From positions 1 through 34,929 of the IMG/VR virus record IMGVR_UViG_3300045993_001215: 34,929 bases of DNA. One strand, 5' to 3'. Positions 26,684 through 28,698 of the stretch are shown here, piece by piece; position 1 is the stretch's first letter; each line of letters starts with the position of its first letter. The position numbers and the translations under genes are program-made. Below the pieces are notes generated by a model. It worked only from the letters and a program-made list of their open reading frames with translations. It was not told the origin of the DNA and did not search any database. The stretch is from a virus.

Positions 26684-28105
26684 TTAAACTTCCAAAGTGT
26701 AGCGATCTTGCATCACTGCCTTCAGCATGATTGCTTCTGGTGTGAAGTCATCCATGTTACCAGACAGGATTGCCGAAGCAACCGCTGGGGAGAAACCAGA
26801 TACCAGTGCGGCACCAGTCTTGTCGAACTTCACAGGAACGTTGGAGCCAGCGTTCAAGTTCCAGAACACAATCTTTGGCACAGAGTAACCTGCAGCTTCG
26901 AACTTGCGTCCAATCATCTCCATAGCAGAGTCATCGTTGCGTACACAAGCATCAAATTGCATATCCGAAAATAGAATTAATGTCTCAGGCATATCTGCCG
27001 CAGGCACAGAGTTCTTCACTGCTGCATCCAAGATTGCCTTGAATGCACCATGCAAGTTAGTACCCATCTCCCAATCGGTCGCAACCATTTGGTTGATCTT
27101 TTGGTTGATGTTACCTTCAAGCTTCACCAACTTTGGGTGTGTGCTGAAAGTCAGCATACAATCCTTGAAGGCACCCTTGTTCTTGTCTGCAAAGTACAGG
27201 CCCAGAGACACTGCGATTTCCAAACAAGTAGTAGTACCCTTTTGACCAGCAAGGCAAGTCATCGAGCCAGATACGTCAACCAATGGCAGCACCGAAGTGT
27301 CACCAATGTAGTTAGGCATAGCAGCCCATTGAGCTTCGATCACATCGAGCTCTTGCTTGTTCCAAGTCATGTCGTAGCCGTTAATACGACCCTTGAGCAC
27401 GTCATGTGGGAAGATTGCCGAAGCATTGATCTTCACAGTTGGGTCATCACCCTTAACCAACTTGGTGATGTACTCAGCGTAGGTAGTACCGTGGCGCCCA
27501 AACGCCTTCTTGTAACGCGAGTGTGCGACGGACGGTACATGGCTGTAGTTGATCTCATCCCACTTTTGAGCACACATTTGTTGCTCAACAGTAGTTGACA
27601 TAGTCACCAGAGACTTGCGGTAGAACTTTGGGCTCATACCGAAGAACTCACGGATTTCACGTGCGACATCACCCTTACGAGGAGTCCACTTTGCAGCCAG
27701 ACCATTTTGGTTGCGCAGAGCGTCACCCAAGATAGTGTAGGCAGTTTCCTTCAATGGACGAGTCTTAAAGACGAACAAGTCGTCAAAGCGGCCCAATTCA
27801 GGAACCTTCTTAACCAGAGCCACAGCAGCTTCTGGGTTAGCGGTTTCAAGATGAGTCAGCACTTGGCGGAAGATTTCACGTTCGCCCGCGCCACCACGAA
27901 CGTCACGAGCCCATGCAACGATGCGCAAGGCAAGGTCAGAGTTCTCTACGAATGCCGCAGTGAATTGAGGGATGATGTTCTTGCCGCGGCTTGCACCGAT
28001 AGCGAAGAACAGGTCAACACAGGCGTTAGCTGTGGATGCACGAGCCTTCATACCGTTAGCGGTACGAGCTTCTTGGTTGCCGATGGCGTTTACGAATGCG
28101 TTCAT
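26684..28105 (-). CDS. Ro60-like protein: DUF2828/TROVE-type helical repeat plus vWA domain
   Basis: 473 residues. The N-terminal half has FFAIGASRGK (33-42), ALRIVAWARDVRGGAGER (59-76) and LGRFDDLF (104-111), the typical DUF2828 block, a HEAT-like helical domain related to the TROVE ring of Ro60. The C-terminal vWA domain has a MIDAS: DVSGSM (277-282), Thr349 (MGTNL) and Asp381 (FSDMQF). Ro60/Rsr proteins bind misfolded RNA and Y RNAs, and help exoribonucleases. DUF2828 proteins are not well studied, so an RNA role is inferred. The long structured leader before it supports RNA-based function or regulation. Confidence 0.85.
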   Translation of the reverse strand: MNAFVNAIGNQEARTANGMKARASTANACVDLFFAIGASRGKNIIPQFTAAFVENSDLALRIVAWARDVRGGAGEREIFRQVLTHLETANPEAAVALVKKVPELGRFDDLFVFKTRPLKETAYTILGDALRNQNGLAAKWTPRKGDVAREIREFFGMSPKFYRKSLVTMSTTVEQQMCAQKWDEINYSHVPSVAHSRYKKAFGRHGTTYAEYITKLVKGDDPTVKINASAIFPHDVLKGRINGYDMTWNKQELDVIEAQWAAMPNYIGDTSVLPLVDVSGSMTCLAGQKGTTTCLEIAVSLGLYFADKNKGAFKDCMLTFSTHPKLVKLEGNINQKINQMVATDWEMGTNLHGAFKAILDAAVKNSVPAADMPETLILFSDMQFDACVRNDDSAMEMIGRKFEAAGYSVPKIVFWNLNAGSNVPVKFDKTGAALVSGFSPAVASAILSGNMDDFTPEAIMLKAVMQDRYTLEV

Positions 28106-28663
28106 AATATTCTCTTTCTATAACAGGTCAATATCGACCTAAACTAACAGGATGGAGTGGATAGATATTTTATTATTCTGGTTGCGCATTTACGGCACGC
28201 CGGTTTCCACCGCAACCCTAGCAACAATTCATGTTGCCTATTCTCTGTGATTTTTCTACCAGAGACAATATATTCGGTACTTTGCCCACCTATTCCGTTC
28301 CTTCTGTGGTCCTGATTTTAAATCATCAGGACTGATATTTCTATCATCCTACCGGCACATTCTTCGGACATTAGCTTGTATTTTAAATGCTGTACTCATC
28401 CTTTACAAATAACAGGTTGGTTTGTGCTTTTTGTTTTTACAGTGAGAAATTCCAAACTCACTGTGATACCCGAAGATATCGGACTAGTGCGGCCGTTAAG
28501 CCGCTATATTTTTGCTGAAACCAAACCTCTAATCAAATTTAACAGGATCGTCTTTTAGATTTTTTACAAGACCCACCTTGTTTGCTTCCAGTATCCGGAG
28601 TTTGATGTCCGGATAACGTGGCAGCGTTCTGTAGTTAGTTTAAATTGCAGAACCGATCCTTAT
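28106..28663 (-). ncRNA. Structured non-coding region (5' leader or separate RNAs) before the Ro60-like gene
   Basis: About 560 bases without a credible minus-strand gene, transcribed from promoter 28670-28698. It holds at least nine perfect short helices. Examples, plus coordinates: 28592-28599/28608-28615 (TATCCGGA/TCCGGATA), 28439-28446/28457-28464 (8 bp), 28465-28470/28475-28480 (UUCG-loop), 28489-28493/28500-28504, 28309-28316/28325-28332 (8 bp), 28242-28247/28260-28265, 28221-28226/28232-28237, 28180-28186/28211-28217 (with inner CGGC/GCCG) and 28125-28129/28136-28140 right before the gene. Such density suggests one or several structured RNAs, possibly Y-RNA-like partners of the Ro60-like protein. 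Confidence 0.6.
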
Positions 28664-28669
28664 ACCTTC

Positions 28670-28698
28670 ATTATACACCCATTAGAAATGAATGTAAA
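28670..28698 (-). promoter_or_regulatory. Sigma70-type promoter for the RNA region and Ro60-like gene
   Basis: Minus strand TTTACA (28698-28693), 17 bp, TATAAT (28675-28670), spacer with TTTCTAATGGGTG. It lies directly after the upstream gene's stop. Confidence 0.85.

What the first reader, a model, noticed from the sequence alone, without database searches (positions are those of the whole stretch)
28106..28698. Densely structured RNA region transcribed in front of a Ro60-like gene
Seen: about 560 bases with no minus-strand gene, a consensus promoter at one end, and at least nine perfect or near-perfect short helices, one with a UUCG loop. A 7-bp helix (28180-28186/28211-28217) encloses two overlapping, mutually exclusive inner stems. 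Known: Ro60 orthologues such as Rsr bind Y RNAs encoded next to them, and Y RNAs direct Ro60 to exoribonucleases. Inference: this region may encode one or several Y-RNA-like RNAs, or a long autoregulatory leader bound by the product. A stretch reading TGTCCGAAG (near 28369-28361) is faintly like the vertebrate Y-stem GGUCCGA; that is weak evidence. A phage-borne Ro/Y pair with the DUF2828 branch would be new to me.
Basis: partly seen in the sequence, partly recalled or inferred. Interest (0 to 1): 0.88.

Follow-up and report, generated by a model that had tools for sequence, protein, structure and literature searches.

The report
Tandem partner RNAs before phage Ro gene
The 560-base stretch in front of this phage's Ro60-like gene is a row of at least three structured RNA modules that share a closing stem and a CAGCAA signature; the same signature sits beside Ro-like genes of this family in phages, bacteria and archaea, and it resembles a family of amoeba RNAs of unknown role, so these are probably the RNA partners of a whole branch of Ro-like proteins.

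Summary
The gene is a DUF2828/DUF7788 protein whose model matches only Ro60 structures over its full length. Its leader starts at a consensus promoter and holds three tandem RNA modules plus a vestigial hairpin at the start codon. Each module is a 7-bp closing stem of variable sequence, then 3 nt, then CAGCAA, then a variable insert, with G(UU) after the stem. Comparative evidence is strong. In 49 independent upstream regions, 98 of 120 CAGCAA have their perfect complement at exactly this spacing, against 0-8 at other spacings. Related viral loci give 302 sense and 2 antisense modules. Of 80 distant DUF2828 loci in bacterial and archaeal genomes, 70 carry it. Of 19 contigs without the gene, none does. 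Loci of classical TROVE Ro genes lack it. Some relatives' modules carry a circularly permuted tRNA domain like that of the bacterial Y RNA YrlA. The small modules match Dictyostelium Class I RNA below Rfam's cut-off. Best reading: tandem Y-RNA-like partner RNAs of the Ro-like protein, probably with feedback on its own mRNA. Binding and expression are untested.

The parts
28670..28698 (-). Promoter TTTACA-N17-TATAAT; predicted start about 28662-28664, right before module 1
   Evidence: sequence
28544..28660 (-). Module M1: closing stem AGGATCG/CGATCCT, linker GTT, core CTGCAA (one change from CAGCAA), insert with hairpin CGGACAUCAAACUCCG; followed by GTTAA
   Evidence: (z -6.4); same layout in L001, L002-L004
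28414..28528 (-). Module M2: closing stem AGGTTTGG/CCAACCT with one bulged U (perfect AGGTTGG/CCAACCT in L001), CAGCAA, UUCG hairpin, hairpin CAGUGAG...CUCACUG, then AAAAACAAAAAG; followed by GTTAT
   Evidence: (z -5.6)
28149..28402 (-). Module M3 (type B, 254 nt): closing stem AGGATGA/CCATCCT (6 of 7 pairs), linker GTA, core CAGCAT; followed by GTTAG
28180..28217 (-).
28125..28140 (-). M4: hairpin AGGTC-GATATT-GACCT followed by GTTA, no CAGCAA; occupies the place of the last module that overlaps the ribosome-binding site in relatives
26684..28105 (-). DUF2828/DUF7788 (PHROG 850) Ro60-like protein, 473 aa, with conserved MIDAS residues D277, S279, S281, T349, D381

Best explanation
The leader is a row of partner RNAs for the Ro-like protein encoded right behind it. 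One sigma-70-type promoter makes a transcript that begins at the closing stem of M1 and runs through M1, M2, M3 and a vestigial hairpin into the mRNA (sequence; transcription inferred). In each module the two ends pair in a 7-bp stem whose sequence does not matter but whose pairing does, with CAGCAA three bases inside and G(UU) just outside (shown by comparison). I infer that this stem plus CAGCAA is the binding site of the DUF2828 ring protein, the job the lower stem of Y RNAs does for Ro60, and that the variable insert is an effector part that brings the ring to a partner (a nuclease, tRNA enzymes) or blocks it. Effectors of permuted-tRNA type occur in the same family in relatives, not in this window. 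In many relatives the last, smallest module overlaps the ribosome-binding site, so free protein probably shuts off its own translation once its partner RNAs are saturated (inferred). In the window this module has shrunk to a hairpin without CAGCAA.
For: (1) Architecture: 219 descriptor hits in 73 loci against 11 in shuffled sequence. In 49 distinct upstream regions not used to define it, 98/120 CAGCAA have the perfect 7-nt complement at offset 3 (0-8 at offsets 0-2 and 4-8), all 98 followed by G; 47/49 regions have a module. 302 distinct sense against 2 antisense modules, 63 distinct stems. (2) Covariation in helices not selected by the descriptor: compensatory changes in 14, 10, 6 and 2 sequences in a second helix of type B; 45/45 cells paired with 7 stems in a type-A hairpin. 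(3) Linkage to the protein: R1 found in 14/19 DUF2828 phages and 0/4 phages without; 8/8 contigs with and 0/19 without the gene; 70/80 DUF2828 loci at 32-55% identity from bacterial and archaeal genomes, 164 sense, 2 antisense. TROVE Ro loci: none. (4) Protein: Foldseek E<=0.001 only to Ro60 structures; VIA Z 13.3-9.7 for Ro60 chains, then 8.8 for vWA domains only. (5) Y-RNA-like effectors: permuted tRNA in 10/47 inserts of 70-125 nt, 0/940 shuffled; full-length YrlA matches of 47.8 and 40.1 bits, one in the nearest relative at a module.
Against: No expression or binding data for this virus. All three window modules deviate from the consensus (M1 core CTGCAA, M2 bulged stem, M3 core CAGCAT with 6/7 pairs), and the short-module covariance model finds nothing in the window at E<=10. 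The window's modules have no recognisable tRNA-like domain and no Rfam match at E<=5. Most YrlA matches are below Rfam's cut-off, and that model also rings on ordinary tRNAs. Some DUF2828 phages have no module near the gene, and in Aeh1 none was found anywhere. The protein model is of moderate confidence (pLDDT 74.5) with a large rmsd to Ro60.
Confidence: 0.75

Rival explanations
1. Purely cis-acting leader: the modules are protein-binding sites or attenuator stems that regulate translation of the DUF2828 gene and are never released as separate RNAs.
For: Tandem modules in the same transcript as the gene, last one at the ribosome-binding site in many relatives.
Against: Modules also lie downstream of the gene (mycobacteriophage, Felixounavirus, Klebsiella and Staphylococcus phages) and kilobases away in tRNA arrays. 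Large structured inserts and permuted tRNA domains are more than an operator needs.
Confidence: 0.15
2. RNA-processing or tRNA-array elements: the stems are cleavage or stability signals that separate tRNAs and mRNAs in phage arrays and have nothing to do with the Ro-like protein.
For: Many modules lie inside tRNA arrays.
Against: T4 and large contigs without DUF2828 lack them, while distant bacterial DUF2828 loci carry them right upstream of the gene.
Confidence: 0.06
3. Decoy or RNA-repair role: the RNAs and the Ro-like ring bait or repair tRNAs against host anticodon nucleases rather than steering a nuclease.
For: tRNA-like inserts in relatives, RtcB near the gene in a Listeria phage, RNA ligases near it in other phages, tRNA arrays next to it. 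The same idea is raised for YrlA in PMC7790460.
Against: Most modules, the window's included, are not tRNA-like. It shares the core claim (Ro-partner RNAs) and differs in purpose only.
Confidence: 0.25

Closest known systems
Bacterial Y RNA YrlA (Rfam RF02553) with Rsr (TROVE Ro60)
   Same: Ro-like gene adjacent, ends joined by a stem, modular effector; in several relatives a circularly permuted tRNA domain in the same topology
   Different: Protein is DUF2828, not TROVE. Stem signature is stem-3nt-CAGCAA...G, not YrlA's stem with AUGC and AcUuG. Tandem arrays in the leader; window modules not tRNA-like; matches below Rfam's cut-off
Dictyostelid Class I RNAs (Rfam RF01414; PMC7919456)
   Same: 6-bp covarying closing stem with first G fixed, UUACAGCAA next to the 5' strand (commonest phage linker is UUA), end CUGU, variable A-rich inside; the small phage modules are about as long. 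The Dictyostelium model finds modules in 8/19 DUF2828 phage records and 5/8 DUF2828 contigs
   Different: Below Rfam's cut-off (best 36.6 against 41.5 bits). Linker 3 nt against 4. Eukaryotic solo genes with a DUSE promoter. The known bound protein is the RRM protein Rnp1A; no Ro-like partner reported. One chance-level match each in T4 and in one contig without the gene
Ro60 family: human Ro60, Deinococcus Rsr, Thermus phage phiLo Ro60 (9l5y)
   Same: Whole-length fold match and conserved MIDAS residues
   Different: About 10-17% identity. Pfam TROVE not matched; DUF2828/DUF7788 instead
Metazoan Y RNAs and nematode stem-bulge RNAs
   Same: RNA partner of a Ro protein, closing stem
   Different: No GGUCCGA-type stem. 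Stem-bulge-like matches (RF01656, 34-37 bits, cut-off 38) appeared next to 3 of 4 TROVE genes but not next to DUF2828 genes

Membership tests
Ro60 protein family (fold) | HEAT-type ring plus vWA domain, matched by structure over most of the length | tested here: met
   top matches are Ro60 only, VIA Z 13.3-9.7 over 340-374 residues; model of moderate confidence
Ro60 protein family (fold) | Pfam TROVE domain PF05731 | tested here: not met
   DUF2828 and DUF7788 match, TROVE does not
Ro60 protein family (fold) | MIDAS motif D-x-S-x-S...T...D | tested here: met
   D277, S279, S281, T349, D381 invariant in 16 proteins
Bacterial Y RNA (YrlA, RF02553) | Encoded next to a Ro gene | tested here: met
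Bacterial Y RNA (YrlA, RF02553) | tRNA-like domain in at least one RNA of the species | tested here: inconclusive
   Nearest relative has one (L291:6349-6463, 31.3 bits) and others clearly do; none found in the window itself
Bacterial Y RNA (YrlA, RF02553) | Score over Rfam gathering threshold | tested here: not met
   no window match; best in relatives 47.8 against 69 bits
Bacterial Y RNA (YrlA, RF02553) | YrlA-type Ro-binding stem sequence | tested here: not met
   the stem part of the model does not pair on the module; the module has CAGCAA instead
Bacterial Y RNA (YrlA, RF02553) | Binds the Ro protein | not testable with these tools
   needs binding assay or CLIP
Dictyostelid Class I RNA (RF01414) | Covarying short closing stem starting with G, 3' end CUGU | tested here: met
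   (63 stems; stem position 2 is G in 289/302; UGU at the 3' side in most) against PMC7919456
Dictyostelid Class I RNA (RF01414) | 11-nt motif CCUUACAGCAA | tested here: inconclusive
   CAGCAA at the same place, preceded most often by UUA, but linker 3 nt not 4
Dictyostelid Class I RNA (RF01414) | Over Rfam gathering score | tested here: not met
   best 36.6 against 41.5 bits
Dictyostelid Class I RNA (RF01414) | Length 42-65 nt | tested here: not met
   window modules are 115-254 nt; about a third of the modules in relatives are of this length
Vertebrate Y RNA | Lower stem with GGUCCGA and bulged C | tested here: not met
   TGTCCGAAG present only in the window and L001; no Rfam match

The most novel reading that the evidence does not exclude
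DUF2828 proteins are a second, ancient branch of Ro RNPs with their own RNA partner class, marked by a covarying closing stem, CAGCAA and a CUGU end. The dictyostelid Class I RNAs, abundant amoeba RNAs reported in no other organism, belong to the same class. Ro-type RNPs of this branch would then span phages, bacteria, archaea and amoebae.
Probability: 0.4. Interest if true: 0.95.

Novelty: new variant of a known kind. Interest (0 to 1): 0.86.

Why it matters
DUF2828 is a widespread protein family without an assigned role; I found no paper that treats its function. Tying it to a defined RNA signature gives a testable function (Ro-type RNP) to hundreds of phage and bacterial genes. It explains odd 'pseudo-tRNA' and non-coding stretches near them, and it offers a possible protein partner and origin for the amoeba Class I RNAs. 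It also shows that each branch of Ro proteins may have its own RNA code.

Tried and rejected
Rfam on the window: nothing at gathering threshold or at E<=5 in the region. Vertebrate Y-stem similarity: not conserved. Overlapping inner stems as a switch: loop differs in relatives. MFE z-scores as evidence: rejected, since coding controls score as low. The abundant RNAs of Listeria phage CKA15 (PMC12282133) as expression evidence for the modules: rejected, because CKA15_059-061 coincide with a ROOL RNA about 1 kb upstream of the gene. YrlA matches under about 31 bits: not used, as the model rings on tRNAs in 7 of 14 control genomes and in T4. T4 and G018 matches to RF01414 read as chance: they fall inside coding-like sequence without a proper stem. 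Co-occurrence via polB and gp32 relatives gave too few contigs; UvsX relatives were used. A first loop count that included matches outside modules was discarded. A looser AGUUUCGA hairpin pattern gave no covariation signal because the register was not fixed. CAGCAA/CUGUUA pairing as a pseudoknot: rejected, as M1 keeps CUGUUA with CTGCAA.

Full report
What is there. On the minus strand a consensus promoter (28698-28670) is followed at 28660 by the first of three tandem RNA modules, M1 (28660-28544), M2 (28528-28414) and M3 (28402-28149). A small hairpin (28140-28125) and then the DUF2828 gene (28105-26684) follow. No ORF of 60 aa or more on the gene's strand lies in between. The 560 nt fold better than 100 shuffles (z -4.3) and single modules give z -6.4, -5.6 and -3.1. 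Coding stretches of the relatives are nearly as low, however, so folding energy is not my evidence.

How the modules were found. Upstream of the same gene in IMG/VR relatives, stretches of very different sequence repeat one plan: a 7-nt strand such as AGGATCG, AGGTTAG, AGAATGT or AGATTAA, three bases, CAGCAA, a variable insert, then the exact complement of the first strand and G(UU). In 49 distinct upstream regions fetched later and not used to define the plan, 98 of 120 CAGCAA have their perfect 7-nt complement downstream at exactly this spacing. All 98 are followed by G; other spacings give 0-8. Over the viral loci there are 302 distinct sense modules, 2 antisense, and 63 different stems. 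The descriptor requires pairing, so the stem's own covariation is partly by construction.

The window's own copies. They are slightly off consensus: M1 has CTGCAA, M2 one bulged U in the stem, M3 CAGCAT and six of seven pairs. A one-mismatch descriptor finds M1 and M3 in the leader, against 0.036 expected and 0 of 1000 shuffles reaching two. The nearest relative L001 (protein 90% identical) has the same three-module plan, with a perfect M2 stem. The covariance model of the short RBS module finds nothing in the window. The site of that module holds only a hairpin without CAGCAA.

Linkage to the protein. A covariance model (R1) built only from short modules of the relatives finds modules in 14 of 19 complete DUF2828 phage genomes with hosts from Campylobacter to Mycobacterium, and in none of four phages without the gene (T4, phiKZ, SPO1, P-SSM2). 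By the plain descriptor or by eye, four of the remaining five also have one: Bacillus PJN02, Cronobacter S13 and Enterococcus PEF1 and Vibrio nt-1. Among large contigs, 8 of 8 with DUF2828 and 0 of 19 without carry it; the 19 are mostly fragments, about 1 Mb in sum. In bacterial and archaeal species genomes, 70 of 80 DUF2828 loci only 32-55% identical have at least one module, mostly just upstream; 164 are sense and 2 antisense. Eight TROVE Ro loci from six Chloroflexota genomes have none. Three of the four loci scanned show weak matches to a nematode stem-bulge RNA, a Y RNA relative, instead.

The protein. Pfam calls it DUF2828/DUF7788 and PHROGs 'RNA-binding protein'. A profile search of PDB sequences gives Ro60 first, weakly (E 0.023). 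The AlphaFold2 model (pLDDT 74.5) matches Ro60 structures first: Thermus phage phiLo Ro60, Deinococcus Rsr and human Ro60 are the only Foldseek matches with E<=0.001. VIA Z is 13.3-9.7 for Ro60 chains, then 8.8 for vWA domains alone. It is not a TROVE-domain protein by Pfam.

Y-RNA-like effectors. Of 47 module inserts of 70-125 nt, 10 read as a tRNA only when their ends are joined; none reads linearly, and none of 940 shuffled inserts does. These are tRNAs closed at the acceptor and opened at the anticodon, the topology of YrlA's tRNA-like domain. Rfam's YrlA model matches such modules over its full length at up to 47.8 bits, below its cut-off of 69. One lies in a tRNA array about 10 kb upstream of the gene in the nearest relative, starting at a module stem. 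The window itself shows none.

A possible amoeba relative. Rfam's Dictyostelium Class I RNA model has a stem, CUUACAGCAA and a UG end. It matches the small modules at up to 36.6 bits (cut-off 41.5), mostly at sites also found by R1. PMC7919456 describes Class I RNAs as 42-65 nt with a 6-bp covarying stem, start AAG, end CUGU and an 11-nt motif, found in no other organism, and bound by the RRM protein Rnp1A. The commonest phage linker gives UUACAGCAA and the 3' end is (C)UGUU. DUF2828 relatives occur in giant viruses. Whether dictyostelids have a DUF2828 protein could not be tested here.

Mechanism and limits. I take the closing stem plus CAGCAA as the docking site of the DUF2828 ring, the insert as effector, and the module at the ribosome-binding site of relatives as feedback. 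Shown: architecture, covariation, linkage and fold similarity. Inferred: binding, release as separate RNAs, effector roles, feedback. In Listeria phage CKA15 the DUF2828 protein is found in purified virions (20 peptides, PMC12282133), so the RNP may travel with the particle; that too is inference.

Noticed in passing
L094:1470-2021; L180:919-1229 (Listeria phage cka15, OR088597): The extremely abundant non-coding transcripts CKA15_059-061 reported in PMC12282133 coincide with a ROOL RNA (88.5 bits, cut-off 99.1), not with the modules.
   Followed up: partly
L045:3319-3444, L025:1641, L013:2752, L035:700 and 900, L047:1820, L100:2585: Circularly permuted tRNA sequences (3' half before 5' half, joined at the acceptor) inside modules; linear tRNA finders miss them.
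   Followed up: partly
L390:1026-1122, L391:1258-1359, L392:3053-3118: Weak matches to nematode stem-bulge RNA RF01656 (34-37 bits) next to TROVE Ro genes in Chloroflexota: possible bacterial Y RNAs of the metazoan type.
   Followed up: no
L293:5206-5669: GOLLD RNA (203.5 bits) in the tRNA array of a 364-kb DUF2828 phage contig.
   Followed up: no
L187, L189: Close relatives of the window's family-B DNA polymerase have about 950 extra bases within the gene match: probable intein or intron.
   Followed up: no
L089:2905-3336 (Klebsiella phage KP2025, PP919962): An annotated 432-bp tRNA-Arg overlaps the start of the DUF2828 gene; probably an annotation artefact or a split tRNA.
   Followed up: no
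Listeria phage CKA15_055; also 'structural protein' labels: The DUF2828 protein was found in purified virions (PMC12282133) and is labelled structural in several phage records.
   Followed up: no
window:33501-34244 (+): Homing-endonuclease-like gene on the strand opposite to its neighbours.
   Followed up: no
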